Part shown: positions 17,183 through 52,477 of the stretch, in pieces | Layout of the letters: the number at the start of each line of letters is the position of its first letter | Numbering within the stretch: the first letter of the stretch is position 1 | Assembly (NCBI GenBank): GCA_030679035.1 | Contig: JAUXTH010000099.1 | Span: 1-63,209 of the forward strand | DNA from: Methylobacter sp. | Lineage (GTDB): Bacteria > Pseudomonadota > Gammaproteobacteria > Methylococcales > Methylomonadaceae | Direction of reading: 5' to 3' | DNA length: 63,209 bases | Position numbers and translations under genes: made by a program | The notes under the pieces: generated by a model | Told to the model about the DNA's origin: nothing | Seen by the model: only the letters and a program-made list of their open reading frames with translations | The model's database searches: none

Positions 17183-17230
17183 CCGAGACTTCCTTAATGC
17201 CCGTCCAGGGAAAATTAAGGAAGTCCCGGA
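17183..17230 (-). promoter_or_regulatory. Leader hairpin I-5 (before the 75-residue gene)
   Basis: Sense 5' arm CCGGGACTTCCTTAAT (17229-17214) pairs over 16 positions with ATTAAGGAAGTCTCGG (17198-17183). The loop contains TTTCCCTGGACGGGC, whose TCCC can also pair with the GGGA of the 5' arm. This is the longest stem of the set. Confidence 0.85.
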
Positions 17231-17250
17231 AGGCAGGATGAAAAATTCAT

Positions 17251-17304
17251 CCGAGAGAAAAACATGCCCCAGAAGGAGAAAGTATTTTTTCTCCCAGATG
17301 GGTG
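17251..17304 (-). promoter_or_regulatory. Leader hairpin I-4 (orphan, no gene follows)
   Basis: Sense: ACCC, then 5' arm TGGGAGAAAAA, middle arm TTTCTCC, GGGG, 3' arm TTTTTCTCTC. Full architecture of the family, but only an 11-codon frame lies between it and leader I-5. The gene it served may have been lost. In 17305-17463 there are only tiny frames, the first (17 codons) overlapping the stop of the 78-residue gene; I do not call them. Confidence 0.75.
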
Positions 17305-17463
17305 ATTTAATTGAAGTATCTAACACAAGTATCCAGCGGTCACATGCCTAAGATACTGGTAAAGGTAAAGCTAATTTGCATAATGTCACATCGAGCAGAT
17401 CCTCGTTTGTACGCTATAAAATACCGGTAAGTGAACCAAACCAAGCAACGCCATTAATCAAAT

Positions 17464-17700
17464 TCATAACAAACCTGCTTTTCTCAAACCATCTTCCACG
17501 CATTTATGAAGCGGTGATGGCGTGCAAGCAAAGTGCTGCAAGATTGAATTCAGCGTTTTATCATCAAGTTCAATGCCATAGTGTTCACGCGCAAGTTTTG
17601 CGGCTTGATACTGCGGCAAAGTCTCGTTGAGGATATTCTGGTAGTGCTCCGTACACGCTTCCAGATCCTCGTCCAAAACATCGTCGGCTTCATTTAACAT
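17464..17700 (-). CDS. Small acidic plasmid protein of unknown function
   Basis: 78 residues, mostly helical and acidic at the N-terminus (MLNEADDVLDEDLEACTEHY). No recognised family. It starts 8 nt after the preceding stop with CTTAGGAGG as Shine-Dalgarno and, unlike its better-spaced neighbours, has no leader hairpin. This fits the rule that the hairpin is absent where genes are tightly coupled. Confidence 0.65.
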   Translation of the reverse strand: MLNEADDVLDEDLEACTEHYQNILNETLPQYQAAKLAREHYGIELDDKTLNSILQHFACTPSPLHKCVEDGLRKAGLL

Positions 17701-17708
17701 AAAACCTC

Positions 17709-18545
17709 CTAAGCAGCGTGAGCTACAAGCTTTTTGACTTGAACAGGACGATGTTCGGTAATTTCAACAACGTCATAATCATCAAGAAGATTGATAAAAT
17801 TGCTACGGATAGAATCACATGCTGCATCAAACGCGCAAACCAGTTCAACACGATCACGAAGACTTCCCATTGACCAATCTTCGGCACAAAAGTCCTCGCC
17901 CTGATCAATGCTTTTATTTGCCACCATTAATCGTGAAGGCGGAACGCTGAAATTGGATCGAGGATTTCCACAAACACCACAGGTATTTGATAAAGAACAG
18001 TCTGCCAATTGAGATTTGAGTCGAATAATCAGAGAAAATTTCTCATCATCTGAAATGGACAAGTCCTGAATTGTAGATTGCCCAAGATATACTTTAGGTA
18101 GCCAAGAATTCTGGCTTTTGAGTATTTCTTGAGCAATAACTTCTTCGTTATTGTCCTGAAAAGTTACCGGTGGCACTTTTTTGAAATTCCGCTGAGAACA
18201 GGTAGGACAGTAACTAAGATGCCCGGTGAGTTCCAGATGAGAATCATGCAAAATCAGATAACCGCTAGAACGTCCATTGGAACCAATGGTATAACGATGA
18301 CCTTGCTCATAAGTAAAGTCGTCAATAGGACTTCTAATGTCATCCCAATAATCAACGCCCAGTAATTCGTAAGCCTTATCATCCTGTGAAGACGACAAGC
18401 CAAGATGGTGAAACTTGACGTTATTGGCATAGGACGTTAGACGATTCCAAGAACTCATGGTGTCGTAACGAAAATGCCCGTGTAAAAAATCTACCATTGC
18501 GGAACGGCTGCGACGGTCAACTTTCTTTTGAAAAAAAGTAGTCAT
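17709..18545 (-). CDS. Plasmid protein with two CxxC zinc knuckles, function unknown
   Basis: 278 residues. Two cysteine pairs (CPTCSQRNF near residue 118 and CGVCGNPRSNF near 199) suggest a zinc-binding fold. The rest has no motif I recognise. The N-terminus (FFQKKVDRRSRSAMVDFLHG) resembles the opening of several uncharacterised plasmid proteins, so the gene may be widespread, but I cannot assign a role. Leader hairpin I-3 and AGGAG precede the ATG. Confidence 0.65.
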   Translation of the reverse strand: MTTFFQKKVDRRSRSAMVDFLHGHFRYDTMSSWNRLTSYANNVKFHHLGLSSSQDDKAYELLGVDYWDDIRSPIDDFTYEQGHRYTIGSNGRSSGYLILHDSHLELTGHLSYCPTCSQRNFKKVPPVTFQDNNEEVIAQEILKSQNSWLPKVYLGQSTIQDLSISDDEKFSLIIRLKSQLADCSLSNTCGVCGNPRSNFSVPPSRLMVANKSIDQGEDFCAEDWSMGSLRDRVELVCAFDAACDSIRSNFINLLDDYDVVEITEHRPVQVKKLVAHAA

Positions 18546-18564
18546 GATGTTTCTCCTGCTTTGA

Positions 18565-18625
18565 AAAGTAAAAAGCGGAAAAAAACAATTGTCCCAGTGG
18601 GAAAATGAATTTTCCCGCGTGGGTA
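18565..18625 (-). promoter_or_regulatory. Leader hairpin I-3
   Basis: Sense: ACCC, 5' arm GCGGGAAAA, middle arm TTTTCCC, then ACTGGGA, 3' arm TTTTTCCGC, U-rich tract, AGGAG, ATG. GGGAAAA can pair with either TTTTCCC (loop TTCA) or the 3' arm. Confidence 0.85.
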
Positions 18626-18642
18626 AGGTAAAGTAAGGTTAA

Positions 18643-19044
18643 TTAGTCAATTGAAAACCAGTAAGAGCCCGTTTCATTGCGATCAAAGCCAGTATTAAAG
18701 TCCTCGAATACAAGACGAGAGACTTCTTTTAAAGCCAGTTGCAAATCATCAGTTTCCTGACCTTCTATTTCGACGATTAATTTTAGGCCGGATGAATTAT
18801 CGGGCGAAGGATCGACGATTGTTTCCAGTCGCGTAATCTCTGGTTTAGCTTGATCAAGGGCTTTGCTCAGATGGAAATAAGAAATTCCTAAATCCGGCCA
18901 GTCTAAAGATTCCTCCCAAACCGGTTCGCCTTCATCTGACACGCCAATAGCACCTAGTTCAATCGTTTGCTTAATCTCTAAAGACGCTTTGCAAACATTG
19001 ATTAAAGCGCGTAAAGAAGCGCTTGTTAACGTGATATTGCTCAT
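18643..19044 (-). CDS. Plasmid protein of unknown function
   Basis: 133 residues, acidic, no signal peptide, membrane segment or zinc motif. Pattern suggests alternating helix and strand (LRALINVCKASLEIKQTIEL; LKLIVEIEGQETDDLQLALK). No family recognised. It follows the Hsp90-fold ATPase gene and may be its partner by position. Preceded by leader hairpin I-2 and AGGA. Confidence 0.6.
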   Translation of the reverse strand: MSNITLTSASLRALINVCKASLEIKQTIELGAIGVSDEGEPVWEESLDWPDLGISYFHLSKALDQAKPEITRLETIVDPSPDNSSGLKLIVEIEGQETDDLQLALKEVSRLVFEDFNTGFDRNETGSYWFSID

Positions 19045-19125: not shown

Positions 19126-20724
19126 TTAAGCAGCGGTTACCGAAGCAACTTTGCCGCCATCATCCAGGGTAATAACAAACGACTTGCTATTTAGCGATGG
19201 ACAATTAAAAGAACTAGGTATCAATTTCTTCATTGCATCAGCAGGATCACTTGCCGTATTTGCGACAGTAAACGAGGAAAAAGCATAGACATCGGACTCA
19301 TGCGTTGATTCATGGAACTCGTCGTACTCAGATTTATAGCTTGAAATCTGTTTTAGGACATAACCTGAAGCATCACCCTTTGGCACAACAGCTAAACCAC
19401 TTTGATCTTCACCGTGGTAGAAAGCGGAGTCGGCAATTTCAACAACATCGTTGCCAATCTGAATTCGGTACGCGTCACAAAAATGCACATAGACCGTAGT
19501 CCACTCACCTTCAAAAAGCGCTCCGTGTGATGCATTGACCAGTTCAGTCGTCAATTCTTCATTATCGAGATACCGAATCGTAGGATAAATCCAGTGATCA
19601 TTATCAAGTCCATCGTTATAAATCAGGCTTTCCCTTTTCCATGCGAACATGTGCAAAGCAGAGCCTTCATTTTGCATATCATCATTAAAGTTAACAACTT
19701 CGCGACTTTCAACTTCTGATCTGGTCAATGCTTTGTCAGGGTGACGCGTAAAATCGCTATAGACTTCGGTGTCACACACAGGGTAATCGTCATATTCGTG
19801 AAGAACTTCACGAGGAACAACGGGGACGTCATTAAGCAAGCTTAATAGTTTCCAGTGCTTCAGCGTGTCGTAAAAGAGCACAAAAACATCAGCAGGTGCT
19901 GTAGTTTTAAACAACGTAAAATGCTTCTCCATTTCTTGCGCTAAGACGATCCTGACAAGAGCAATAACTTCTTTTTCATCAATAAGCTTATCCCGATCCG
20001 GTAAACGCGCATAAAAACGCGAAGAATCAAGATGAATGATATGCCGATTAACCAATCTAAAGTTATAAGAGCTGTAAACGGGCAAGCCCTGTAGGTACAC
20101 TTCAAAATCACGAACAACATTGTCCGCTTTATCAACACCATCCAAATAGACGGCACCAATTTCGGTATCTACGAAGTGAAGTCCTGAATCAAGCGCACAT
20201 TTCCTATCAAAGCTTGTGCCGTTGAATTCAACTGGAATCGGAAAACCCTGTGCAAGCTGATTAAGCATGCTCTCGATTTGTTCGATTTCCAGATCAACGC
20301 CAAGCATTGTGATAGCGGTAACACCATCCCAATCTGTCACTGGCGAAATAGTGACAGGTTTAAACGACAATACATCGTCAGTATTAACTGATATGCGGCC
20401 GCTTTTACTGACAACCGTCATGTGACGACAAGCAAATAAGGCGGACAAGAAGCCGATACCAAATGGATGCTCTTGAGCAACCACATCAGCGTCCCATCCG
20501 GATTCAGCGACAGTCAACAGGGTCTCGATAGAATCGATACCGCAACCATCATCAGTTACCCGAAGAATTTTGGTTTCAGGCGCAAACTCAAAAACGACTT
20601 GAGTCGCATTAGCGCGGCGGGCGTTTTGCATCAGCTCGCCAAGAACCGTAGTTTTATTGGTAAAGCTGAATTTCAAGCTTTTGACCAGGTTGGCTTGGTT
20701 AACTTTCATTGCTACTTCTTTCAT
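19126..20724 (-). CDS. Hsp90/GHKL-fold ATPase of plasmid operon I
   Basis: 532 residues; start at 20724 chosen because GGAGA sits 7 nt upstream (an internal ATG at 20709 is less well placed). The N-terminal ~200 residues show the Bergerat ATP fold: N-box LGELMQNARRANA, G1 box TDDGCGID and G2 box HPFGIGFLSALF. The remaining two-thirds does not match Hsp90, MutL or gyrase domains I know. It would bind and probably hydrolyse ATP in the cytoplasm. Similar Hsp90-fold proteins occur as orphan genes on plasmids and phages and in some defence loci, but I cannot say which applies here. It is the first full gene after a spacer/promoter copy. Confidence 0.8.
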   Translation of the reverse strand: MKEVAMKVNQANLVKSLKFSFTNKTTVLGELMQNARRANATQVVFEFAPETKILRVTDDGCGIDSIETLLTVAESGWDADVVAQEHPFGIGFLSALFACRHMTVVSKSGRISVNTDDVLSFKPVTISPVTDWDGVTAITMLGVDLEIEQIESMLNQLAQGFPIPVEFNGTSFDRKCALDSGLHFVDTEIGAVYLDGVDKADNVVRDFEVYLQGLPVYSSYNFRLVNRHIIHLDSSRFYARLPDRDKLIDEKEVIALVRIVLAQEMEKHFTLFKTTAPADVFVLFYDTLKHWKLLSLLNDVPVVPREVLHEYDDYPVCDTEVYSDFTRHPDKALTRSEVESREVVNFNDDMQNEGSALHMFAWKRESLIYNDGLDNDHWIYPTIRYLDNEELTTELVNASHGALFEGEWTTVYVHFCDAYRIQIGNDVVEIADSAFYHGEDQSGLAVVPKGDASGYVLKQISSYKSEYDEFHESTHESDVYAFSSFTVANTASDPADAMKKLIPSSFNCPSLNSKSFVITLDDGGKVASVTAA

Positions 20725-20799: not shown

Positions 20800-21049
20800 A
20801 AAAAATAAATCAAATAAAATCACGGCTAAGCCGCTTCATAAATATCACGCCGGAGCGCTTCATTGATTCCTTATTTAAAGTGCTGAACTGGCACTGCTTT
20901 CGAGTCCTCTTAGAGAACTACAAAAAAAATCGTCTTTCCACAATACTCACTCAAAGCACTCTGGAAAGACGGTAAAGGTATTATGCCAGTTACCGTCAAA
21001 ATAGTAAGATCAAAAGAAGCTTAAATTACGCGCCTTTTGAGATAAAATG
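20800..21049 (-). promoter_or_regulatory. Inter-operon spacer copy 1 (promoter region of operon I)
   Basis: About 250 bp nearly identical to 47614-47866 and, in its operon-proximal half, to 52477-52600. In sense order it holds an imperfect TCAAAAG/CTTTTGA dyad, GACGGTAA...TTACCGTC, CGTCTTTCC...GGAAAGACG followed by T8 (terminator-like, sharing CGTC with the previous dyad), TTGTGG...TGTAGT as a weak promoter candidate, the near-palindrome AGTTCTCTAAGAGGACT, AGTGC...GCACT, and a short reading frame. Homology to copy 2 stops at GATAAAATG (21041-21049), where chromosome-type sequence begins. Confidence 0.75.
20810..20863 (-). CDS. Possible leader peptide of operon I (17 codons)
   Basis: Reads MKRSGVIFMKRLSRDFI with AAGGA 6 nt before the ATG. 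The equivalent frame in spacer copy 2 differs by a synonymous change and one conservative replacement (I-F to I-L), and copy 3 keeps the first 15 codons. The constrained frame suggests translation, perhaps coupling ribosome movement to the following leader hairpin. The alternative is that it is only the conserved DNA of a regulatory region. Confidence 0.4.
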   Translation of the reverse strand: MKRSGVIFMKRLSRDFI

Positions 21050-21805: not shown

Positions 21806-23650
21806 GTGTGTCACGAGCGCAAGCGAAAGCTTGCGGTGCTATATCAGAGATGGGAGTAGGCCTCCCGAGGTCGGCTTGCAGGAGTCGGTCTCAAACCGCC
21901 CAGTGCTGCTGCGTCTAAAATACGCGGTGGTGAGCGACTGTGGAAAAGGCATCGTAAAAGATGTCAGGTAGGTATTGAGAAGATGAGCGAAAGCAAACCG
22001 TTCGATGACGCATCGTTAGACTCTTAAGGTACTGTCAAAACTGGAGTCGGTCCGATACTCCAGGATCAGTCGGGACGAAACCTGTCTACGGGCCCGATGG
22101 CAGTCGGTGTAAAGGCGGCATGAGCTCAATACAGGCTTTGGTATGGAACGTGAGAACCTTGTTCTGAATGTAAAGGAAAATGACAAATGGCAGACACCAT
22201 GAGAAAGAATACTGATGCCGGAACGAGGGGCGGAGTTGCCCATAGTAGTGATGAAGCTCTTGTAATGAGGGTGGAGAAGGGGTGGCGTTATCCTGCTGAC
22301 GAAGGTTGCCAACCTGCCTTTGCAGGGATGAGTGACATGATATCAGCCAAACCTTATAGTATTGCTAAGCGCACGGTATGGGAGGCATACCTGCAAGTTA
22401 AGGCCAACCGTGGGACTGCCGGTATTGATGGTGAAACAATCGCAATATTTGAGCAGAACCTGTCCAAGAATTTGTACAAGCTGTGGAATCGGATGTCATC
22501 GGGGTCGTATTTCCCGCCACCGGTAATGCAAGTGGAAAGTGGGTGGTTTTAGAAAGCTGGGTATTCCCACCGTGTCAGACCGGATTGCGCAGACCGTTGT
22601 CAAACTCATTATTGAGCCTATACTCGACCCGATGTTTCATCGAGACTCCTATGGTTATCGGCCTGGGCGGTCGGCGAAACAGGCGGTTGCCACCAGAAAG
22701 CGGTGCTGGCAGTATGAATGGGTGGTTGAGTTTGATATCAAAGGAGCCTTTGATCAAATCGATCACGGTCTCTTGATGAAAGCGGTTCGCGTCTACATCA
22801 GGGAAAATTGGATTCTTCTGTATATCGAACGGTGGCTGACTGCGCCGTTCGAAAAGGAAAACGGTACCCGATTGTCACGGGAACGCGGTACTCCGCAAGG
22901 AGGTGTGGTCAGTCCGATTCTGATGAACCTGTTTATGCATTATGTATTTGACTGCTGGATGCAGCGATCCCATCCTCAATGTCCTTTTGCTCGCTACGCT
23001 GATGATGCGGTAGTTCACTGCCACAGTCAGAAGCAAGCAGAAGCTGTGATGCAATCCATCGCATTCAGGTTGAAGGAATGCGGGTTGATGATGCATCCTG
23101 AGAAGTCGAAGATTGTTTATTGCAAACACAGTCGACGTACCAAAGACTATCCACTAGTGACGTTCACGTTTCTTGGTTTTACGTTTCGGCCGAGGAGGGC
23201 GCTGAACAAGCAAAACCGGCGATTTACCAGTTTTCTGCCGGGTGTAAGTGAGGATGCCTTGAAGCGGATAAGGCTGGAAGTACGTGGGTGGCGGCTATGC
23301 CGACAGACATCGGCGACGCTTGTTGATCTGGCGCTGTTGGCGCAGCAATACAACCCGACGATACGCGGGTGGTGCCAATATTATGGGGCGTTTTATCCAA
23401 CGGCGATGCGCAGGCTATATCGGTATATTGACGAAAAGCTTGAGCAATGGGCCAGACGTAAATACAAAACACTGAAGCGACATAAGCGAAGAAGTGTGGA
23501 ATGGCTTAACAAGATGAAGGATGTCTTACCCCAAATGTTCGTCCACTGGCGTGTTATAGGAGGAGAGGTTGGATAACGGGAGCCGTGTAAATCGAGAGAT
23601 TTACGCACGGTTCTGCGAGGGACTCAAGGTGAAACTCCTTGGGTCTGCCA
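21806..23650 (+). mobile_element. Bacterial group II intron
   Basis: The region carries a reverse transcriptase/maturase gene inside a structured RNA. Domain V is visible at about 23580-23613: GAGCCGTG, a GAGA tetraloop hairpin, then CGCACGGTTC, with the AGC triad. Domain VI follows (GGACTCAAGG...CCTTGGGTC). The ribozyme 5' part occupies about 21806-22186. Exact ends are approximate because I cannot fold domain I by eye. The maturase is frameshifted, so mobility would need help in trans. Confidence 0.8.
22187..23576 (+). pseudogene. ltrA: Group II intron reverse transcriptase/maturase, frameshifted
   Basis: The first frame (22187-22552) gives the RT N-terminus: SIAKRTVWEAYLQVKANRGT, AGIDGETI, SGSYFPPPVMQVE. 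It then hits a stop, while a second frame (22539-23576) continues with GGFRKLGIPTVSDRIAQTVV, FDIKGAFDQIDHGLL, the active-site FARYADDAVV and QGGVVSP, and a maturase domain (RGWCQYYGAFY). A few residues normally between QVE and GG are missing, so a small deletion or indel near 22540 is likely. No HNH endonuclease domain is present. Confidence 0.85.
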
Positions 23651-23655
23651 ACCTT

Positions 23656-23993
23656 AGCGATTCGATACTAAAATAACTCCACTAACGACAGGAAAAAGAC
23701 TACAAAATCACATTAAAAAACTACTTTCACCAATACTTATTGGTTAATACGCTAGAAAATATCCACCTGCGTGACCGAAACAGTGCCTATCCGACAGCCT
23801 CCTAGGCGAACCGCTGACGCTGACACATCAGTTGTACCATTCAAAAAAATGTGTGACATCGCGTTCAACCGTTGCGTACGTTGCGTAGACAACCACTGTG
23901 CTACCAGACGCTCCAGACAACAAAAAGGGCTTTGACATGGTTTCGTCAAAATCCTTGATGTAGAGACATGCGCCGCAGTCGGCGTAACGATCC
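23656..23993. other. Non-coding stretch after the group II intron
   Basis: Apart from the right IS end near 23793-23808 I see no gene, RNA or repeat here. The sequence probably holds decayed 3' parts of the interrupted ABC gene. Confidence 0.5.
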
Positions 23994-28451: not shown

Positions 28452-28501
28452 TACGGTAATTTTCTCAGGTTTATTAACAGGAATTTAACAGCGGGTAATC
28501 T

Positions 28502-29865: not shown

Positions 29866-29873
29866 GCTACCTC

Positions 29874-30608: not shown

Positions 30609-30609
30609 T

Positions 30610-31182: not shown

Positions 31183-31202
31183 CGTTATTCCTCGTGTAAT
31201 TA

Positions 31203-33321: not shown

Positions 33322-33327
33322 GATTAA

Positions 33328-39411: not shown

Positions 39412-39721
39412 CGCCACAATTCGGACAAAATTGGCCGCCACGAGCAACATAACTTTCCTGTTGCTTATCGATTACAGGATATTCTTCATCAAACGCGGCA
39501 AAAACATCTGCCACACAAGAATCATTATGAATAATGGCCTCAATGTGACCAATAAACTCCGTGCCATCATTAAGCATCGCTATCTCGTCGCCATCGGCAC
39601 CCTCAATATCGAAATCCTGAATAGCAACCTGAATGGGCGCCGAGGAATTCGAATAAATCGCTTGAACAATGCCTCCTTCAACGTGAATGACAAGACGGAT
39701 TTGATTTGTATTTGTAGTCAT
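39404..39721 (-). CDS. Small acidic plasmid protein with C-terminal zinc knuckle (paralogue A)
   Basis: 105 residues from the ATG at 39721, fixed by GGAGA and leader II-9. The N-terminal ~60 residues match 39819-40148 (MTTN.N.IR.VI.VE.G.V...YS.S). The end is GGQFCPNCGAK, a CxxC zinc-ribbon-like tail. Unknown function. Last gene of operon II. Its stop codon lies at the edge of the IS5 remnant, so the true 3' end could have been altered by the junction, although the CPNCG tail looks natural. Confidence 0.7.
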   Translation of the reverse strand: MTTNTNQIRLVIHVEGGIVQAIYSNSSAPIQVAIQDFDIEGADGDEIAMLNDGTEFIGHIEAIIHNDSCVADVFAAFDEEYPVIDKQQESYVARGGQFCPNCGAK

Positions 39722-39738
39722 GGTGTTTCTCCAAAAAA

Positions 39739-39793
39739 ATAAAAAAAGGGAAAACACTGGCCCGTCGGGGAAAGTTGTTTTCCCTGAAGGGTT
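39739..39793 (-). promoter_or_regulatory. Leader hairpin II-9
   Basis: Sense: AACCC, 5' arm GGGAAAACA, middle arm TTTCCC, GACGGGCC, 3' arm TGTTTTCCC, T7ATTTTTTT, GGAGA, ATG. Confidence 0.9.
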
Positions 39794-39818: not shown

Positions 39819-40148
39819 TCAATTGAGTACTGTGGTTGCTTTCATAACACTGAGCGCAATAGGCATCGCCAAATCTTCTTGCTGTTTATCGACCATGTGA
39901 ATTTCTTCGTCAAATGCAGCAAAAACTTCTGCCACATAATTAGAATCATCCATGGAAGTAACATCATCGAGAGCGACAAACTGATCACCATTGGTGAGTG
40001 TTACAAGCTCGCTATCATCGGCGCCATCTGCCATATCGTAATCCGCAATAATAAACCTTATAGGTACTAATGAGTCCGAATAAACGTCTTTCACAAGTCC
40101 TTCTTCGACGCGGATAACGATACGGATTTCATTTGCATTTGTAGTCAT
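39819..40148 (-). CDS. Small acidic plasmid protein (paralogue B), 3' end frameshifted
   Basis: 109 residues from the ATG at 40148 (GGAGG, leader II-8). Paralogue of 39404-39721 over most of its length, including VFAAFDEE and DKQQE. After that the frame diverges. The -1 frame would give FGDAYCAQCYESNHSTQLSE, which matches EAYCAQCYESIGDD in the protein at 40266-41486. So the native zinc-knuckle C-terminus was lost by a one-base indel near 39870-39885, or there is a sequencing error. Confidence 0.65.
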   Translation of the reverse strand: MTTNANEIRIVIRVEEGLVKDVYSDSLVPIRFIIADYDMADGADDSELVTLTNGDQFVALDDVTSMDDSNYVAEVFAAFDEEIHMVDKQQEDLAMPIALSVMKATTVLN

Positions 40149-40164
40149 GGTGTTCCTCCAAAAA

Positions 40165-40219
40165 ATAAAAAAAAGGGGAAACACTATGCCCATCAGGGAA
40201 GTGTTTCCCCTGCTGGGTT
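40165..40219 (-). promoter_or_regulatory. Leader hairpin II-8
   Basis: Sense: AACCC, 5' arm GGGGAAACACT, middle arm TTCCC, TGATGGGC, 3' arm AGTGTTTCCCC (perfect 11-bp outer stem), T8ATTTTTT, GGAGG, ATG. A good type example. Confidence 0.92.
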
Positions 40220-40265: not shown

Positions 40266-41486
40266 TTAAGATGGTTTGTCCTGGCTTTGGGCCATACGTG
40301 TAACGCTATCTTTCGCGTACCACCGACTGTTCCGGTAGTCCTCATCACCGATTTCGTCAACCAAAAAGCAGTCAATGTCATCAGCAAATTCCTGATCAGA
40401 TCCTTTGTTAAACAAAGCATTCAGATCAACCAATACCTCGGCCTTTTGAATCGCATCAGCATGGCTTTCCGCTTCAATATCGCATACCTTGACACGCACA
40501 ATGGCGTAGATGTGGACGTTGTGTTTTTTGACACCATTGCTGGAAGATGAGACGGTATACAGCAACCGTTTTTCAACTAGCATTTCCTCAGTAATGTCGA
40601 CCAACCGGTCAGCACCAAAGAATTCGAGAATCGACTCTTTAACGCTGACATAGTGCGGCCCAACATGATCAGTCAACCCGTAAACGAGTTCATCGCTTGG
40701 GTAGTCGTCATCTTCCAACTGATGAATCACTTCAGCAGACAAGGCAAGAACGCGACCGGTAACATCAAGATCACAAGCGCCATCAATATCCATCGCGGTG
40801 TCGTGAACCCAAGCCTGCGGCTGGAAATGAGCAATGACGCGCCGATCATCAACGACTTGAACGTCTACAGGTAAAACTTGATACCTGTTGTTATCGTCTA
40901 ATTCGGCTTGGCTTAGTAAAACACTTACGCCAAGCGGAAAACTAACCGAATAACAGTGCGCTTGTCCGAACAATACATGACAAATAACCCCATCTGCATT
41001 AGGCCCGGTAAAAACATCCTGGTCAGAGTCAGTGTCCGAAGTTTCGCCTTGAATGGAGATAAGTCGAGTTCCAACAGGAAGATGGATCAATCTAGTATCG
41101 TCACCAATGCTCTCATAACACTGAGCGCAATAAGCTTCATCAAACAAGGTAGTAACTTTTGTGCTGCACTGGTCACAAGTCCAATAAGGCTTATCGAACG
41201 TAAAATCCTGATATTCCCAGTTATGCCGGGTAGCAAGATTTTTTGCAAGAGTGCGAAGATCCTCAAGCTTATACATACCAGCATCAGCGATACAATAAGC
41301 CTCATTATTGAAATCTCTTGTATAAGCTGAGAAAAATTGAGGATTATCGTCATCAACTTCACAAATGGTTTCATTCGCTTCGGGATCGAATTCGCCCTTT
41401 ACCCCGTGAATCTCAATGCTCACGTAAAGCTCGGGCTTGGATTCAAGAAGGCTGGTATATTGGTCAAAATATTCATCATCAAACAT
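40266..41486 (-). CDS. Plasmid protein with central zinc ribbon, function unknown
   Basis: 406 residues; start at 41486 fixed by GGAG and leader II-7. A CxxC...CxxC ribbon (WTCDQCSTKVTTLFDEAYCA, then QCYES) lies near residues 108-135. The rest is acidic with beta-rich stretches (YCIADAGMYKLEDLRTLAKN; VDVQVVDDRRVIAHFQPQAW). No family recognised. Its ribbon is shared with paralogue B downstream, suggesting exchange of C-terminal modules among operon II genes. Confidence 0.65.
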   Translation of the reverse strand: MFDDEYFDQYTSLLESKPELYVSIEIHGVKGEFDPEANETICEVDDDNPQFFSAYTRDFNNEAYCIADAGMYKLEDLRTLAKNLATRHNWEYQDFTFDKPYWTCDQCSTKVTTLFDEAYCAQCYESIGDDTRLIHLPVGTRLISIQGETSDTDSDQDVFTGPNADGVICHVLFGQAHCYSVSFPLGVSVLLSQAELDDNNRYQVLPVDVQVVDDRRVIAHFQPQAWVHDTAMDIDGACDLDVTGRVLALSAEVIHQLEDDDYPSDELVYGLTDHVGPHYVSVKESILEFFGADRLVDITEEMLVEKRLLYTVSSSSNGVKKHNVHIYAIVRVKVCDIEAESHADAIQKAEVLVDLNALFNKGSDQEFADDIDCFLVDEIGDEDYRNSRWYAKDSVTRMAQSQDKPS

Positions 41487-41497
41487 AAGGTTCTCCA

Positions 41498-41559
41498 AAA
41501 AATAAAAGTGGGAACCCCAAAGCAACCCAATTGGGAAACGATTGGAGTTTCCCAAGGGT
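41498..41559 (-). promoter_or_regulatory. Leader hairpin II-7
   Basis: Sense: ACCC, 5' arm TGGGAAACTCCAA, middle arm GTTTCCCA, ATTGGG, 3' arm TTTGGGGTTCCCA, U-rich tract, GGAGA, ATG. The inner alternative TGGGAAAC/GTTTCCCA is a perfect 8-bp stem; the outer stem has one A-G mismatch. Confidence 0.88.
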
Positions 41560-41570
41560 AAAATTAATGA

Positions 41571-44425: not shown

Positions 44426-45730
44426 TCAGAACCAGAAGTCCGTAGATTCTGCGGTTTCTTCTGATTCGACTAGATCGTCGTCATCAATATCTTCCAGATC
44501 GTCTTCAGATGAAGATTCAACCGGCGTAACATTAGCGAATTGAGTAACCGCTTTAGCAGTGACCTGAACATCGTCTACAAGTGATCCAAGAACGCTTTCT
44601 ACTAAACCAAGTAATGCATCGGATGGAACGAAAGGTTTTGCGGCTTCTAAAGGTTCCTGAGTAACGGTGTCTTCTTTCGAAGAGTCGTATTTAGCCAGGA
44701 ATGCATCAAAACCAGGAAGATCGTCAACATCACTTTCAATTTGAACTTCAGGTTGTTCACCTAAGTCGTTATCTTCAGTATCCGTTGTAATCTCCAGCAC
44801 AGGCTGTTGAACGATATCTTCATCGGCAAGCGTTGAATCGGCATCTGAAATGAGTTGATCATCCAAATCGTCTTCAAGCTCAATATCAAAATTGATAACA
44901 GTATCTGGCTGCAATAAACCACTGCCATGCCGTTTGATCTTTTCCGGATCGGACAATAACAAACCAAGACGGAATAGGCTATGAAAGACAACGCCGTTAT
45001 AAGGACCACTTTTTGGAAGCAAATCCAAAACACTATCGATTTCATCAACAATCGGCATACACCGATGATCGAGAAAACCAAGACTATCGAGCTTGTCACG
45101 TATTCTTCGAAAACCATTCAATGCCCGAACGGTCACTGAATCTTTACCCACAAATGACCTATCGATAATCTGATTGGCATCTTGAGAAATTTCCCTAAAA
45201 AGTTGTTCACTCATAGTGAGTGCGCGACGTTCGAGAGATTCTTCTTGCTCAGGTTTAGTTACACGAAAAACCACATAATCAAAACGCAGCTTGGCAGCTA
45301 CAGTTCCAACCGGTTCAATGGCTCTACGAATAGCATCGCCAAATTCAGCATGACAACGAATCCATTCTTCAGTATCGGCGGTGTAGCTTGCCAAAAACAG
45401 ATCTCTTTCCTGATAAAACTTCTTGGAAAGCGCATCAAGCTCTTGAGTAATCCTTGTGATCTCAGTCCTTGGATTAGCAAAACCACCAATAAAACGGGTG
45501 CCGGATTCAAGACAAATCCTTTCCGCTTCTTTCTTAATACGATTGAATTCCTTCAGCTTGTCAGGATGAATGGTCTTCTTAGTGCCAAGGGACGCTAGGT
45601 CTTCCGGTGGAAGTCTGGAACCATCGGCAAGCATAAGGTCTTCAGCTCGAAGTTTTTTCGAACTTGTCCAAATACTGATGTCGAGTTTAACGACGTCAAC
45701 CTGGTCAAGTATCATGTCTGCGTTTGTCAT
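44426..45730 (-). CDS. DUF3150-like protein of AAA+/vWA module
   Basis: 434 residues. Residues about 1-270 resemble DUF3150 proteins: LDISIWTSSKKLRAEDLMLA, KEFNRIKKEAERICLESGTR, and EWIRCHAEFGDAIRRAIEPV, rich in helices. The C-terminal 150 residues are acidic and low-complexity (DDLDDQLISDADSTLADEDI). It sits between the WGR-like gene and the vWA gene. It is probably an adaptor or substrate of the AAA+/vWA pair, as inferred from recurrent co-occurrence on plasmids and integrative elements. Confidence 0.75.
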   Translation of the reverse strand: MTNADMILDQVDVVKLDISIWTSSKKLRAEDLMLADGSRLPPEDLASLGTKKTIHPDKLKEFNRIKKEAERICLESGTRFIGGFANPRTEITRITQELDALSKKFYQERDLFLASYTADTEEWIRCHAEFGDAIRRAIEPVGTVAAKLRFDYVVFRVTKPEQEESLERRALTMSEQLFREISQDANQIIDRSFVGKDSVTVRALNGFRRIRDKLDSLGFLDHRCMPIVDEIDSVLDLLPKSGPYNGVVFHSLFRLGLLLSDPEKIKRHGSGLLQPDTVINFDIELEDDLDDQLISDADSTLADEDIVQQPVLEITTDTEDNDLGEQPEVQIESDVDDLPGFDAFLAKYDSSKEDTVTQEPLEAAKPFVPSDALLGLVESVLGSLVDDVQVTAKAVTQFANVTPVESSSEDDLEDIDDDDLVESEETAESTDFWF

Positions 45731-45739
45731 ATCTGCTTC

Positions 45740-45805
45740 TCCAAAAAAAGTAAAAGTGAAGAGACAGATTGCGTCCCATCAGGGCGAAAAATGCCCCTTC
45801 TGGGT
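45740..45805 (-). promoter_or_regulatory. Leader hairpin II-2
   Basis: Sense: ACCC, 5' arm GAAGGGGCA, middle arm GCCCT, GATGGGA, 3' arm TGTCTCTTC, U-rich tract, GGAG, ATG. The outer stem uses two G-U pairs. Confidence 0.8.
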
Positions 45806-45823
45806 AAGTAAAAAATTAAAAGT

Positions 45824-46569: not shown

Positions 46570-47541
46570 CTATTCTCCCCAAGCATCACCGAAAACGTCT
46601 TTGGCAATACGATGGATAGCTTCACGTTGAGTCGGCTCTGCACGTAATGTGAGGGCACGATCTAACGAATACGCCAGCGCATTAGGAGCGCGTTTGTAAG
46701 CAATCATCAAGTTCGTCCAGCGCACCAGAGTCCGTGTGGACATCGTAACGCTTAATTCACCAGAGCTGTCAGAACCACCGACAAAAAGCCGACGGATTTC
46801 ATTAGCGACCTCAATCATTTTATCAGTCAAATTTCCCATAACCGCATCAACAGAAATACCCATGCTAACAAGCGCCGCTTGCAGGATGGACTTCTCAATA
46901 GAAGCTTCAGGATAACCGACTTCCATTAATCTGAACCGATCCAAAAACGCAAGGTTTTGTTGCATGATGCCTTGATAAAGACCGCTTTGATCACCTTGAC
47001 CTGCGGAGTTGCCGGTAGCGATCAGACGGAATTTAGGATGAGGTTTAATTACTTCACCGCCGTTTTGAGGAATGACCAAAGGTTGCCCTTCGATAATATC
47101 GTTCAAACCAGCGAGTTCAGAGGGATCCATCAAGTCGATTTCATTTAAAATCAACAGATGACCATCGCGAACAGCTTGAGCAAGCGGTCCATGCATAAAA
47201 GACATGGAACCATTGACAAGCATAAATTGACCAATAAGATCGTTCAGCTCAAGACGACCATGACAGGTGACTTGATTAACGGGCCAATTCAAGCGAGAAG
47301 CAACCTGGCAGAGCAGCGAGGTTTTGCCTGAACCGGTAGGGCCAGTCAAATACAGCGCATCGCCGAGAGGATTGGTAATAAATGCCAAGATATCGCGTAG
47401 ATGTTCATTTCTGAATACATATTCTTTATTGGCTGGAATTAAAGGATGCAGAGCATCTTCAAAGCCATCAACAGTCATTGCGGCAGGAGCAACAATGCCA
47501 AAAGTTGAACCAATCGCGAATTTTTTAGTTTGAGCAGTCAT
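46570..47541 (-). CDS. MoxR/CobS-like AAA+ ATPase
   Basis: 323 residues. Walker A LTGPTGSGKTSLL (about residue 70), Walker B HLLILNEIDLMD, sensor 1 RLIATGNSAG and an arginine near ERFR-like FLDRFRLMEVG. The N-terminus (FEDALHPLIPANKEYVF) matches CobS-type members. It would form a hexamer that remodels a client together with the vWA protein encoded five positions downstream. First gene of operon II, behind spacer copy 2. Confidence 0.88.
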   Translation of the reverse strand: MTAQTKKFAIGSTFGIVAPAAMTVDGFEDALHPLIPANKEYVFRNEHLRDILAFITNPLGDALYLTGPTGSGKTSLLCQVASRLNWPVNQVTCHGRLELNDLIGQFMLVNGSMSFMHGPLAQAVRDGHLLILNEIDLMDPSELAGLNDIIEGQPLVIPQNGGEVIKPHPKFRLIATGNSAGQGDQSGLYQGIMQQNLAFLDRFRLMEVGYPEASIEKSILQAALVSMGISVDAVMGNLTDKMIEVANEIRRLFVGGSDSSGELSVTMSTRTLVRWTNLMIAYKRAPNALAYSLDRALTLRAEPTQREAIHRIAKDVFGDAWGE

Positions 47542-47614: not shown

Positions 47615-47866
47615 AAAAAATAAATCAAATAAAATCACGGCTAAGCCGTTTCATAAGTATCACGCCGGAGCGCTTCATTGATTCCTTATTTAAAGTGCTG
47701 AACTGGCACTACTTTTGAGTCCTCTTAGAGAACTACAAAAAATCGTCTTTCCACAATACTCGCTCAAAGCACTCTGGAGAGACGGTAAAGTCATTATGCT
47801 ATTTACCGTCAAAATAGTAAGATCAAAAGACGCTCAAATTACGCGTCTTTTGAGGGGGATAAAATG
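47614..47866 (-). promoter_or_regulatory. Inter-operon spacer copy 2 (promoter region of operon II)
   Basis: Nearly identical to 20800-21049. Sense order: AAAAGACGC...GCGTCTTTT hairpin (47823-47853; terminator for operon III), GACGGTAAA...TTTACCGTC, CGTCTCTCC...GGAAAGACG then T6, TTGTGG...TGTAGT, AGTTCTCTAAGAGGACT, AGTGC...GCACT, a short reading frame, and ACGGCTTAGCCGT. These dyads are kept between copies, so they are probably functional DNA or RNA sites. Confidence 0.78.
47625..47678 (-). CDS. Possible leader peptide of operon II (17 codons)
   Basis: Reads MKRSGVILMKRLSRDFI with AAGGA upstream. Same frame, start and stop as in spacer copy 1, with two nucleotide differences inside. See the entry at 20810 for the alternative explanation. 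Confidence 0.4.
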   Translation of the reverse strand: MKRSGVILMKRLSRDFI

Positions 47867-48447: not shown

Positions 48448-48798
48448 TTAGCAGATACCTAATGCCTGGTTCGCAAAATCACGAGCAGAGTCAATTTCAC
48501 CTGCAAGCAAGGCTTGGCACGCATAAAACGCAAATTCCTTTCGCTTTATAGCTTTAACGGAGGCATCGGGTTCTGGGAACGCCGAGACTTCTTCAGCACT
48601 AAAACGCAAGGTTTCGCCGTTCACTTCTTCGAAATCATCGAATAGCAAAGGCATATTTTGAGTGTTATCCCAAATAGTGCTTTCATCAAATGCAGTCTGG
48701 GCCAATTGCTTGGCGGATTCAGCATCAGTCGCGGTTACACCCACAACAACGCGGTGGGTGTAGTCAATTTCGTATGTGACAGCGAATTTTGTAGTCAT
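48448..48798 (-). CDS. Plasmid protein of unknown function
   Basis: 116 residues from the ATG at 48798, placed by leader III-7. The start TTKFAVTYEIDYTHRVVVGV and ATDAESAKQLAQTAFDE suggest a small alpha/beta domain like those found in many phage and plasmid proteins; the C-terminal AFYACQALLAGEIDSARDFA is helical. No family recognised. Confidence 0.65.
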   Translation of the reverse strand: MTTKFAVTYEIDYTHRVVVGVTATDAESAKQLAQTAFDESTIWDNTQNMPLLFDDFEEVNGETLRFSAEEVSAFPEPDASVKAIKRKEFAFYACQALLAGEIDSARDFANQALGIC

Positions 48799-48811: not shown

Positions 48812-48866
48812 AAAGGTTTAAAAAAGAGGCAACTATTTCCAATGAGGATGTTGCCCCTCATGGGTT
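48812..48866 (-). promoter_or_regulatory. Leader hairpin III-7
   Basis: Sense: AACCC, 5' arm GAGGGGCAAC, middle arm CCTCAT, TTGG, 3' arm GTTGCCTC, T6, AGAGGA, ATG. ATGAGG/CCTCAT is a perfect alternative stem. Confidence 0.88.
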
Positions 48867-49207
48867 TAGTGAGATTTTCTATTTGGGATGGATTCGAATT
48901 TGCCTAAAACAGCATCACGAATGTCATTAGGATCCAATCCAGATACCTTGCAGCAGTTGATGAAACTGAAGGGATTTAGATCGCCGATGTTCGTCAGCCA
49001 GTTGTATATTTCAACAACCGTTTTCATTGAACATCTACCGTCAAACAGATTGTGTAACGAGTCTTCCAGAAGACAATCGCAGATATGCGCAATTTCTGTA
49101 TCAGTCCAGGGCGGTACTTCTTCAGGCAAGGTCTCTGTGCTTTGTAGCCACAGCCATTGATCATCGAACAAATCGAGATTTAGGCTACGATCAAAACCTC
49201 GTCGCAT
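48866..49207 (-). CDS. Plasmid protein of unknown function
   Basis: 113 residues, acidic, with WLWLQSTETLPEEVPPWTDT near the N-terminus and a predicted helical C-terminus (FINCCKVSGLDPNDIRDAVL). No family recognised. Preceded by GGAGG and leader III-6. Confidence 0.6.
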   Translation of the reverse strand: MRRGFDRSLNLDLFDDQWLWLQSTETLPEEVPPWTDTEIAHICDCLLEDSLHNLFDGRCSMKTVVEIYNWLTNIGDLNPFSFINCCKVSGLDPNDIRDAVLGKFESIPNRKSH

Positions 49208-50408: not shown

Positions 50409-50519
50409 TCAATTACATTTCCTTCTGGAAACGCAGCTCTTCCTAATAATGAAACCAGAAAAACTGATGAAAATAAAAAAGCTGAAATTAGGCCAAAAAT
50501 TAATTTAAGAATACTCATG
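50409..50519 (-). CDS. Small membrane peptide (36 residues)
   Basis: MSILKLIFGLISAFLFSSVF forms one membrane helix, followed by a basic Cys-containing tail (IIRKSCVSRRKCN). The ATG has AAGGA 5 nt upstream and leader III-4 in front, the main reason to call it a gene. Unknown role, between bet and exo. Confidence 0.55.
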
Positions 50520-50528
50520 ACGATCCTT

Positions 50529-50586
50529 TAAATAATGAAGGGCATCATGAAGTCCCGAGGGGCATACATGATGCCCTGTAGGGTTA
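50529..50586 (-). promoter_or_regulatory. Leader hairpin III-4
   Basis: Sense: AACCC, 5' arm AGGGCATCATG, middle arm ATGCCCCT, CGGGA, 3' arm CATGATGCCCT. Both the 11-bp outer stem and the GGGCAT/ATGCCC alternative are perfect. Confidence 0.92.
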
Positions 50587-50594: not shown

Positions 50595-51569
50595 TTAAGC
50601 CAAATTAGCTTTTGCTTCAGCTAAAGGTGACTTCTTATTGTTGACGATACTACTAGCTTGCTCTGGAGCTTTACCTTCAGAAGAATTCTCTTTAGGATTT
50701 GGCACAGAAGCAGCTTGCGTATTAACAGGATCTTTCTTTTGCGGAAGATTAATCAAATTGGCTTCATAAAGTGATTTAGCCTTATTAATTTCTTCATTCA
50801 CAAAAAGCAAGTTGAATCCTGAGAAGTTTTCGCCGGCATAATCAAGTGCTGCTTGAAATGCACCACCGGCTTTCTGAGCCCGATCAATAAGTCTTGGTGC
50901 CATCTTCGTAGCTTCAACACTGGGTGCCTGATCGGTCGAACCTGACATATCAATGACAGTAGACTGACCTTCGATAATGCGTTCAGCTTCGTCCTGGTCA
51001 TAAATACCGACAAAACCAAATGCAATACGTGAACACTGGATCATGGCTTTATGACGTAACAACCTTTTGGTATGAGTCTGCCAAGGGCCATTGATAATGT
51101 AAGGAGCGCCGCCGTTCTTAGGTGTGCCAGTAAAAGGTGGACGGTAAGTTTCATCAAGAAATTCTTTAATGCGAATAGGATGAGTTCTACCTTTACGGTA
51201 AATTACGCATTCAATCCAAGTTGAGCAAAGTTTGCCACCTTCAGGTGTAATGATTTCATCGGCGTAAACAAATTCAAGCCCATCCATATCGGGATGCTGA
51301 TTAATGATACGAGACCATCCGTCAATACCGACAACAGGAACGATACCGTTCTGCTTATCAGGAAAAGCATAAATTTCTTTAATGAACGGATTCAAACCAT
51401 ATTGATCAGCAACGATCAATAAAGCATTCATCTGTTCATCGCTTACAACACCATCTTTAACTTTAAAGGCTGTCGCTTTTAAAGTGTCAATCAATTTTTG
51501 TTCGTCCTCAAAATTGAATTTATCGGCGAACTTTTTGAACAGTGAATCTTTTTTACTAGTGCTACTCAT
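50595..51569 (-). CDS. bet: RecT/Bet-type single-strand annealing protein
   Basis: 324 residues from the ATG at 51569 (GGAG, leader III-3). Family features of phage Bet/RecT: ALLIVADQYGLNPFIKEIYA, GIVPVVGIDGWSRIINQHPD, the STWIECVIYRKGRTHPI strand pair and GPWQTHTKRLLRHKAMIQCS. It anneals complementary single strands during recombination. The C-terminal 80 residues are a variable Ser/Pro/Lys linker. Encoded next to SSB and an exonuclease gene. Confidence 0.92.
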   Translation of the reverse strand: MSSTSKKDSLFKKFADKFNFEDEQKLIDTLKATAFKVKDGVVSDEQMNALLIVADQYGLNPFIKEIYAFPDKQNGIVPVVGIDGWSRIINQHPDMDGLEFVYADEIITPEGGKLCSTWIECVIYRKGRTHPIRIKEFLDETYRPPFTGTPKNGGAPYIINGPWQTHTKRLLRHKAMIQCSRIAFGFVGIYDQDEAERIIEGQSTVIDMSGSTDQAPSVEATKMAPRLIDRAQKAGGAFQAALDYAGENFSGFNLLFVNEEINKAKSLYEANLINLPQKKDPVNTQAASVPNPKENSSEGKAPEQASSIVNNKKSPLAEAKANLA

Positions 51570-51585
51570 GGTGTACTCCAAAAAA

Positions 51586-51637
51586 TGACACAGAAGGGAC
51601 ACCAAGAGTCCCAAAGGACAAATGGCGTCCCAAGGGA
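51586..51637 (-). promoter_or_regulatory. Leader hairpin III-3
   Basis: Sense: CCC, 5' arm GGGACGCCA, middle arm GTCC, TTTGGGA, 3' arm TGGTGTCCC, U-rich tract, GGAG, ATG. One G-U pair in the outer stem. Confidence 0.87.
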
Positions 51638-51715
51638 AAGTAAAAATTAGCGAAGTTTAATAAAACGAAACGGCGCTAAACTTTAAAAAAGCTAATAAAT
51701 TAAATAACTTGACTC

Positions 51716-52201
51716 CTAAAACGGTATGTCGTCGTCAAAATCATCATAAGCAGGTCCATCATAAGCAGGAGGTGCGGAATGAGAATTAGATTGTGACGAA
51801 GTAGAAGAAGCATTGGCCGAATAAGAAGGCGAAGGTGAAGATCCGGTTGAAGATGATCCAGAAGAATCGTTCGGTTTTCCGCCTAACATTTTCATTTCGG
51901 TAGCATGGATTTCAGTCGAGTAACGATCCTGGCCGGATTGATCCTGCCATTTGCGTGTACGGATAGGACCTTCAAACAGAGTTAAAGAGCCTTTTTTAAG
52001 ATAGTCCCGCGCAATTTCAGCAAGCTTTCCAAAAAGAATGACACGATGCCATTCGGTTTTTTCTTTACGTTCACCTGAAACTTTATCTTTCCAGGATTCT
52101 GTAGTTGCAAGACTGATAGTGGCTACAGCTTTACCTTCTTGAGTAAAACGGATTTCTGGGTCTGAGCCTAAACGGCCGATAACTTGAGCTTTGTTGTACA
52201 T
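51716..52201 (-). CDS. ssb: Single-stranded DNA-binding protein
   Basis: 161 residues. OB fold (residues 1-110): [75 protein letters not shown]. Then a Ser/Ser-Pro linker and the acidic tip FDDDIPF that recruits partner proteins. Plasmid-encoded copy that works with the Bet and exonuclease proteins encoded downstream. Confidence 0.95.
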
Positions 52202-52224
52202 GGTAAATCTCCTTAATAGACAAA

Positions 52225-52273
52225 AAGAAAAAAGGAGACCATTGCCCTGGGGGACATGATCTCCCAGAGGGTT
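52225..52273 (-). promoter_or_regulatory. Leader hairpin III-2
   Basis: Sense: AACCC, 5' arm GGGAGATCAT, middle arm TCCC, CCAGGGC, 3' arm ATGGTCTCC, T6CTTTTT, AGGAG, ATG. Confidence 0.88.
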
Positions 52274-52409
52274 AATTCGACGTCAGCGCTTCGATTTGGG
52301 CGTGACGATTGTTGATTAAAGCAGTGTATGTATCCAAATATTGCTTGGCAGCAGACAAAGCGGTTTCCATGCTGAACATCAGTACAGCAAAAATCAGTAA
52401 CTTTTTCAT
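52272..52409 (-). CDS. Small secreted peptide (45 residues)
   Basis: [20 protein letters not shown] is a good signal peptide, leaving a ~25-residue helical mature peptide ([20 protein letters not shown]). The ATG is placed by AGGA and leader III-1. It is the first gene of operon III. It may act as an entry-exclusion, lysis or signalling peptide; nothing in the sequence decides. Confidence 0.6.
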
Positions 52410-52423
52410 AGTGTATTTCCTCG

Positions 52424-52477
52424 GGTAAAACCAGGGAAAACACATGAGCCCAGCAGGGAGTGTTTCCCTGGAGGGTA
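52424..52477 (-). promoter_or_regulatory. Leader hairpin III-1
   Basis: Sense: ACCC, 5' arm CAGGGAAACAC, middle arm TCCCTG, CTGGGC, 3' arm GTGTTTTCCCTG, then GAGGA and ATG. CAGGGA/TCCCTG with an AACAC loop is a perfect alternative stem. Confidence 0.9.

What the first reader, a model, noticed from the sequence alone, without database searches (positions are those of the whole stretch)
17183..52477. A hairpin leader of one architecture before almost every gene of three plasmid operons
Seen directly: 22 copies (17183, 17251, 18565, 19058, 20737, 39739, 40165, 41498, 41873, 42195, 44150, 44363, 45740, 47555, 48290, 48812, 49219, 50322, 50529, 51586, 52225, 52424). In sense (minus-strand) orientation each reads ACCC, a 5' arm, a loop usually with CCC...GGG, a complementary 3' arm, mostly a U-rich tract, then GGAG and ATG. 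Arm sequences differ greatly (GGGGAAACACT, GGGCGTCA, AGGGCATCATG, GGGACGCCA, GAGGGGCAAC) while complementarity is kept, so pairing is under selection. Genes that start within about 10 nt of or overlapping the previous stop (16930, 17700, 46567) lack it. I know of no described element of this kind. Possible roles: gene-by-gene attenuation, translation control, or RNA processing and 5' protection.
Basis: seen in the sequence. Interest (0 to 1): 0.92.

Follow-up and report, generated by a model that had tools for sequence, protein, structure and literature searches.

The report
RNA switch before each plasmid gene
Almost every gene in these plasmid operons is preceded by its own small RNA switch whose parts can either hide or expose that gene's ribosome-binding site, and the same design, with different letters each time, recurs on plasmids across Proteobacteria.

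Summary
The leaders are real: 19 of the 22 listed positions lie in 18 matches of a covariance model; 42195, 44363 and 48290 do not, and 17183/17251 are one element. Each leader has four private segments: A, B, C and D, where D is the gene's own Shine-Dalgarno and start codon. C pairs with A or with D; A pairs with B or with C. Own partners fit better than partners from other leaders of the same plasmid (116 leaders: C:D z -15.1, A:C z -16.5, 0 of 5000 permutations each), repeated on 76 leaders from other genomes. Before the SD exists A:C is favoured (96 of 116); afterwards the SD-hiding fold (101 of 116); 81 show both, against 11 when C is swapped. Best reading: an aptamer-free translational switch in which A:C exposes and A:B+C:D hides the SD; co-transcriptional timing is my preferred but unproven trigger. 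It occurs on IncC, SXT/R391-type, R27, pCAR1 and methanotroph plasmids; no match on F, pWW0, R388 or Rts1. No Rfam family covers it where scanned, but radC and STAXI RNAs lie just upstream in five cases.

The parts
17152..17304 (-). element before the 75-aa gene 16930-17154; C and D pair across an inserted hairpin
   Evidence: CM match 21.6 bits; fold
18543..18625 (-). element before gene 17709-18545
   Evidence: CM 29.2 bits
19042..19109 (-). element before gene 18643-19044
   Evidence: CM 30.5 bits
20722..20799 (-). element before HATPase gene 19126-20724 (first gene of its operon)
   Evidence: CM 27.5 bits; both folds shown
39719..39793 (-). element before gene 39404-39721
   Evidence: CM 54.1 bits (a training sequence)
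40146..40219 (-). element before gene 39819-40148
   Evidence: CM 54.1 bits (a training sequence); both folds shown
40215..40217 (-). example, segment 5' CCC (pairs with GGG in the SD-hidden fold)
   Evidence: fold
40200..40210 (-). example, segment A GGGGAAACACT (pairs with B or with C)
   Evidence: fold
40194..40200 (-). example, segment B (pairs with A; its CCC pairs with GGG when A:C forms)
   Evidence: fold
40189..40191 (-). example, GGG that toggles between the 5' CCC and the CCC of B
   Evidence: fold; column pairs
40175..40185 (-). example, segment C (pairs with A or with D)
   Evidence: fold
40146..40159 (-). example, segment D = Shine-Dalgarno and start codon
   Evidence: fold
41484..41560 (-). 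element before gene 40266-41486
   Evidence: CM 23.5 bits
41853..41924 (-). element before gene 41571-41855
   Evidence: CM 22.7 bits
44133..44205 (-). element before VWA/CobT-like gene 42240-44135
   Evidence: CM 54.9 bits (a training sequence)
45728..45806 (-). element before DUF3150 gene 44426-45730
   Evidence: CM 24.6 bits
47539..47614 (-). element before AAA (CbbQ/CobS-like) gene 46570-47541 (first gene of its operon)
   Evidence: CM 36 bits
48796..48866 (-). element before gene 48448-48798
   Evidence: CM 31.9 bits
49205..49272 (-). element before gene 48866-49207
   Evidence: CM 31.5 bits
50300..50372 (-). element before YqaJ exonuclease gene (ATG at 50302)
   Evidence: CM 17.2 bits, E 0.034
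50516..50585 (-). element before the small gene starting at 50518
   Evidence: CM 24.1 bits
51567..51638 (-). element before RecT gene 50595-51569
   Evidence: CM 19 bits, E 0.013
52199..52273 (-). element before ssb gene 51716-52201
   Evidence: CM 33.6 bits
52407..52477 (-). element before the small gene starting at 52409 (first gene of its operon)
   Evidence: CM 33.7 bits (a training sequence)
20819..20921 (-). operon-start leader, near-identical in the three operons, upstream of the first element
47634..47736 (-). operon-start leader, second copy
52489..52591 (-). operon-start leader, third copy

Best explanation
Each leader is a cis-acting translational switch without an aptamer. Segments in order: 5' CCC, A, B, GGG, C, spacer, D (SD and start codon). 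Fold 1 (OFF): CCC:GGG encloses A:B, and C pairs with D, hiding SD and often AUG. Fold 2 (ON): A pairs with C, B's CCC pairs with GGG as a cap, and D is free. A is a decoy that resembles D, so both compete for C. Shown here by computation: the three pairings, their gene-private specificity, their balance, and that the favoured fold changes from A:C to OFF when the SD is transcribed. Inferred: that hiding the SD lowers translation, and the trigger. My preferred trigger is timing (about 0.4): the nascent mRNA passes through A:C, ribosomes can load then, and ageing mRNA refolds to OFF, so protein follows fresh transcription. The confidence below is for the switch, not for the trigger.
For: Gene-private pairing: 116 leaders (window and eight plasmid records), own C:D mean -12.6 vs -8.8 kcal/mol after permutation within plasmid (z -15.1), own A:C -12.5 vs -8.5 (z -16.5), 0 of 5000 permutations each; controls B:D z -1.0, A:D z -1.5. 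Independent leaders found by a model that contains A:B and C:D but not A:C: 76 leaders in 12 groups, A:C z -8.2, C:D z -10.9. Earlier test on 75 leaders picked by eye: own upstream region fits own SD region, 0 of 10000 permutations. Order of folds: truncated before the SD A:C is lower in 96 of 116, full length OFF lower in 101 of 116, both in 81, against 11 of 116 with C swapped; at 20, 30 and 37 C and with a second energy set 78-81, against 15 (25 C) and 19 (second set) swapped; independent set 56 of 83. Column covariation scores of both folds exceed all 500 shuffles and every slid control. Orthologous genes: own partner scores better than the mean of the orthologues' partners in 35 of 41 (A:C) and 32 of 41 (C:D). 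The annotated upstream ORF does not run into the hairpin in 108 of 109; no conserved core beyond the G/C stems, AACCC and the SD.
Against: No expression data of any kind. In 20 of 116 the truncated leader already prefers A:B, and in 15 of 116 the full leader prefers A:C, so a timer cannot be uniform. The number of pairs changed on both sides is not above shuffles (16 vs 15.6; 8 vs 7.1), nor is the number of pair types for the OFF fold (58 vs 55.6). In the independent set the controls are not flat: B:D z -2.4 and A:D z +2.2. 81 of 204 listed CDS starts gave no parsed CCC..GGG hairpin, and the pairing tests were made only on those that did. One orthologous pair (133-aa gene) shows no preference for its own partner. 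Folding is equilibrium MFE, not kinetics. Which state is ON is inferred from SD exposure.
Confidence: 0.74

Rival explanations
1. Transcription attenuation: A:C plus a U-tract is an intrinsic terminator before each gene, and an operon-start RNA (the repeated leader here; radC or STAXI RNA elsewhere) makes RNA polymerase read through, as conAn does on Gram-positive conjugative plasmids.
For: In this window 10 of 14 and in Methylobacter L003 11 of 12 parsed leaders have 5 or more T in the 8 nt after A:C; in Methylomonas L005 5 of 12. Structured operon-start leaders exist. conAn precedent: passages of PMC8955417 seen.
Against: In six other plasmids only 0-3 of 7-16 leaders per plasmid have that U-tract (L006, L007, L009-L012), while own C:D beats the others' mean in all nine. 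A terminator does not require C to match the SD.
Confidence: 0.2
2. The same two folds, but chosen by a trans-acting factor (plasmid RNA-binding protein, helicase or host chaperone) that recognises the CCC/GGG hairpin shape rather than by timing.
For: The outer CCC:GGG and inner GGG:CCC are the most conserved letters (the parse requires the outer ones). In the window's genome the model's matches lie on this one contig, as a dedicated regulator on the mobile element would suggest.
Against: No conserved loop or bulge letters; arm letters are private to each gene, so a common small RNA is unlikely. I looked for no candidate factor beyond Pfam scans of window proteins, which show no evident one.
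Confidence: 0.35
3. Translational coupling: ribosomes ending the upstream gene open the hairpins.
For: Elements begin 0-15 nt after the annotated upstream stop in 29 of 109.
Against: Median distance 34 nt, 48 of 109 over 40 nt (upper bounds where a gene is not annotated); three in the window are first in their operon.
Confidence: 0.07
4. RNA processing, 5' protection or mRNA stability is the selected function and SD pairing is incidental.
For: Stable hairpins are predicted before each gene.
Against: Stability would not require private complementarity to the SD.
Confidence: 0.05

Closest known systems
Translational attenuators such as ermC and cat leaders (recalled, not from a call)
   Same: Four segments with mutually exclusive pairing; one arrangement hides SD and start codon.
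   Different: Those use a translated leader peptide and a stalled ribosome, before one gene. Here the annotated upstream gene does not enter the hairpin in 108 of 109, A pairs with B or C (in erm, segment 2 pairs with 1 or 3), and the switch recurs before most genes with private letters.
Metastable leaders of hok and aapA3 toxin mRNAs (passages of PMC6733600 seen)
   Same: Co-transcriptional order of folding decides whether the SD is accessible.
   Different: There transient hairpins keep the nascent mRNA silent; here the predicted transient fold exposes the SD.
Rfam radC RNA RF01754 and STAXI RNA RF01728 (Weinberg 2010, PMC2864571, passages seen)
   Same: Occur on the same stretches; STAXI is described there as near ssb, topoisomerase, antirestriction and integrase genes.
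   Different: Different models; in five cases they end 21-46 nt before an element of the present kind and do not include it.
conAn processive antitermination of pLS20-type plasmids (PMC8955417, passages seen)
   Same: Many hairpins inside plasmid operons plus an RNA at the operon start.
   Different: Hairpins there are terminators; here SD pairing is the shared feature and U-tracts are not.

Membership tests
Any Rfam 15 family | match at the family's gathering score over the element | tested here: not met
   at gathering; with lax thresholds gave no match better than E 0.34. Loci L039, L042, L046-L048, L050 and L007 outside 8000-19000 were not scanned.
radC RNA (RF01754) | match to its 149-position model | tested here: not met
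   none in the window, in 21 genomes, own and relatives or L007 8000-19000; in 398 genomes 11 matches in 5 genomes, and the five in L040, L041 and L043 lie upstream of elements, not on them
STAXI RNA (RF01728) | match to its 153-position model | tested here: not met
   two matches, 25 and 46 nt upstream of elements in L044 and L045
Riboswitch | conserved aptamer core | tested here: not met
   in alignment A1 the only columns conserved at 90% or more are in CCC, GGG, CC and the start codon
Translational attenuator (erm/cat type) | mutually exclusive pairing that hides or frees the SD | tested here: met
   by computation:
Translational attenuator (erm/cat type) | translated leader peptide covering the first segment | tested here: inconclusive
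   annotated upstream ORFs do not enter the hairpin in 108 of 109; short unannotated ORFs were not searched
Intrinsic terminator | G+C-rich hairpin followed by U-tract | tested here: inconclusive
   present in most parsed window and L003 leaders, 5 of 12 in L005, rare in L006, L007, L009-L012
conAn-type antitermination | operon-start antiterminator acting on internal terminators | not testable with these tools
   operon-start leaders exist but function needs experiments

The most novel reading that the evidence does not exclude
A two-tier RNA control layer shared by a large class of conjugative plasmids and ICEs: a structured RNA at each operon start (radC, STAXI, and the unnamed leaders found here) marks the transcription complex, and a private, sequence-barcoded folding timer before nearly every gene lets only mRNA made by that complex, while nascent, be translated; private letters keep some 20 switches on one plasmid from cross-pairing and from recombining.
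Probability: 0.25. Interest if true: 0.93.

Novelty: new variant of a known kind. Interest (0 to 1): 0.86.

Why it matters
If right, conserved accessory genes (ssb, RecT/bet, exonuclease, CobS/CobT-like, DUF3150, RadC, ArdC, antirestriction) of IncC, SXT/R391-type and related elements are under a layer of translational control for which I found no description in the searches I ran of an open-access library. It would give radC and STAXI RNAs a place in a larger scheme, and it offers a natural set of more than a hundred aptamer-free switches with the same layout and different letters, useful for testing how co-transcriptional folding sets translation.

Tried and rejected
Membership of radC RNA was my first guess because RadC genes are among the targets; rejected. 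A DUF3085 RNA motif was recalled from memory; the leader of a DUF3085 gene in L010 has no Rfam match better than E 4.6. A phage origin was checked: the DUF3150 protein has 1 match in 50,697 phage records, and 25 of 26 stretches of viral contigs with the operon-start pattern hold no element at E <= 0.01. Upstream-ribosome coupling as the general trigger was rejected on distance. The first energy comparison used a wrong constraint setting and is void; one search replaces it. In one search three of the 20 window start codons were off by one base (corrected). L008 was dropped from the permutation tests as a near copy of L007; L004 has no annotation and entered only model searches. For the model, 56 leaders passed length and energy limits and I removed 10 by eye before aligning 46. 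Of 25 operon-start leaders, 22 were aligned; two divergent ones and one near copy were left out. The paper library is open-access only, so subscription papers on SXT and IncA/C were not seen. The first hand-ins of this report were returned, once for checking and once for its format.
Full report
Setting. The window is a whole contig (C19) of an unnamed 4.79-Mb genome. Its minus-strand operons carry ssb, RecT, YqaJ exonuclease, DUF6876, CbbQ/CobS-like AAA, DUF3150, CobT/VWA, a HATPase and a DUF7146/Toprim gene. Similar gene orders stand in R997 and in an IncC-typed Edwardsiella plasmid; that this is the SXT/R391 and IncA/C module, and that R997 is of the SXT/R391 family, is recalled. The best plasmid match of the VWA protein is Methylobacter sp. 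YRD-M1, 75% identity over 81%, so a methanotroph host is likely (inference).

Observation. The leaders were read directly. A descriptor (CCC..GGG hairpin ending 22-60 nt before the start codon) fits 123 of 204 hand-listed CDS starts in ten regions, against about 14.5 in mononucleotide shuffles. A covariance model, R1, from 46 leaders (alignment A1; model) finds 18 minus-strand leaders in the window, covering 19 of the 22 reported positions. In the whole genome its 14 matches at E <= 0.1 are all on this contig and strand (150 of 408 first-look candidates were scored).

With parsed segments, permuted only within each plasmid, 116 leaders give C:D z -15.1, A:C z -16.5 and A:B z -15.0 (A:B by construction), while B:D (z -1.0) and A:D (z -1.5) are near flat. 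The three pairings are about equally strong on average (-12.6, -12.5 and -12.2 kcal/mol).

Independent check. R1 was run on 20 stretches from other genomes. It models A:B and C:D but not A:C. Of 94 matches I used 86; 83 were parsed and 76 fell in groups of three or more: A:C z -8.2, C:D z -10.9; controls B:D z -2.4 and A:D z +2.2. Column tests on A1 agree: covariation score 0.247 vs 0.174 shuffled for the OFF fold and 0.357 vs 0.221 for the ON fold, 0 of 500 shuffles, best at slide 0; but the number of pairs changed on both sides is not above shuffles.

Two folds and their order. Column pairs of the constrained folds show that the GGG between B and C pairs with the 5' CCC in one fold and with B's CCC in the other. 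Truncated just before D, A:C is lower in 96 of 116; with D present A:B + C:D is lower in 101 of 116; 81 of 116 change from the first to the second. With C taken from another leader of the same plasmid only 11 of 116 do. The result holds at 20 and 30 C and with a second energy set, and in 56 of 83 independent leaders. These are equilibrium energies, not kinetics. One search is void (wrong constraint).

Trigger. The hairpin starts at or after the annotated upstream stop in 108 of 109 and at a median of 34 nt from it, 48 of 109 beyond 40 nt, so ribosome coupling is unlikely to be general. Apart from the G/C stems, AACCC and the SD no letters are strongly conserved, which speaks against an aptamer and, with private arms, against a common small RNA. 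That leaves timing or a shape-reading factor; I rank timing slightly first because the folds change order as the SD emerges.

Termination. In this window and in L003 the A:C hairpin is followed by a U-tract (mean 5.4 and 6.1 T in 8) as in intrinsic terminators; L005 is intermediate (4.1) and the other six plasmids have 2.1-3.3. Attenuation may be added in methanotroph plasmids but is not the shared feature.

Distribution. R1 matches at E <= 0.001 in 19 of 398 Pseudomonadota genomes, the window's own included, often several per contig (only 12 candidates per genome were scored, so lower bounds), and at E <= 0.01 in 9 of 41 (own and 40 relatives). Whole plasmid records at E <= 0.01: pAR060302 (IncC) 24, Vibrio alfacsensis plas2 25, Methylobacter 19, Methylomonas AM2-LC 17, Azospirillum 16, Edwardsiella IncC 14, Comamonas 13, Methylomonas UP202 10, Pseudoalteromonas 9, R997 9, pCAR1 6, R27 5; F, pWW0, R388 and Rts1 0 (stricter filters, a few weak opposite-strand matches included). 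That pCAR1 is IncP-7 is recalled; R27 is called the archetype of IncHI1 in an abstract seen. Genes behind 83 independent elements include RadC 5, DUF3577 4, RecT 4, CbbQ-type AAA 4, DUF3150 3, ArdC N-terminal domain 3, YqaJ 3, CobT 3, antirestriction 2, SSB 1.

Orthologous leaders. Among 41 leaders of seven gene groups the own partner scores better than the mean of the orthologues' partners in 35 (A:C) and 32 (C:D). Example: in the VWA gene, window A GGGGCAAAC with C GGTTTGCC, and L003 A GGGGTAAAC with C GGTTTACC.

Operon starts. Each of the three operons here begins with a near-identical 103-nt leader before the first element. In IncC-, Vibrio-, Comamonas- and Pseudoalteromonas-type plasmids I found 25 copies of another leader: a hairpin with loop UARCUGG followed by an A-rich stretch, typically AAANAAACAG (the loop and roughly the stretch were the search terms, so their constancy is partly by construction; the stem was not). 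In 22 aligned copies (21 distinct) the stem is paired in 84 of 84 cells with changes on both sides at all four pairs; its loop lies 34-55 nt before the CCC in 11 of the 16 with a parsed element. In genomes of the same class radC RNA and STAXI RNA hold this place: in five cases called by both models the gap is 21, 21, 21, 25 and 46 nt. Of the five genomes with radC RNA, three had R1 matches.

Literature. Ten searches of the open library were used. Passages were seen of PMC3118119, PMC4344509, PMC2864571, PMC8955417, PMC6733600 and PMC3155540; none of the passages describes such leaders. PMC12370729 (listing only) holds the words STAXI and EFASI and concerns small RNAs of outer membrane vesicles.

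Verdict. A real, widespread RNA element without a name that I could find; a translational switch by anatomy; ON/OFF behaviour and trigger untested.

Noticed in passing
L010, L011, L012, L006 (for example L010:6264-6297): A second unnamed RNA at operon starts: hairpin with loop UARCUGG and covarying stem, then typically AAANAAACAG; 25 copies on four plasmids. In 398 genomes the exact pattern TARCTGGN7AAANAAACAGC occurs only in G310, four times, on the contig richest in the present elements.
   Followed up: partly
window 20819-20921, 47634-47736, 52489-52591: Three near-identical 103-nt operon-start leaders with small hairpins; two more in L003.
   Followed up: partly
L043, L041 (G396, G230) and L044, L045: Rfam radC and STAXI RNAs end 21-46 nt before elements of the present kind in five cases called by both models, suggesting they are operon-start leaders of the same system; an EFASI match in L045 has no element called next to it.
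   Followed up: partly
window 17152-17304: An independent long hairpin sits between the C and D arms of the element before the gene preceding the Toprim gene; by eye long hairpins also precede Toprim genes in L006 (16213) and L012 (20450).
   Followed up: no
window around 44363: A leftover leader with no gene right behind it; the similar leader in L003 (13519) precedes a gene that is missing here.
   Followed up: no
window 28011-35806: SAM-cycle genes (S-adenosylmethionine synthetase, adenosylhomocysteinase, MTHFR) lie between the plasmid-type operons; a second synthetase gene, 97% identical, is on contig C81.
   Followed up: partly
window 39404-39721 and 39819-40148: Two adjacent small genes that look alike, with similar leaders, probably a duplication.
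   Followed up: no
window 1-155 and 21852-23666: A cobalamin riboswitch cut by the contig end and group II intron matches.
   Followed up: no
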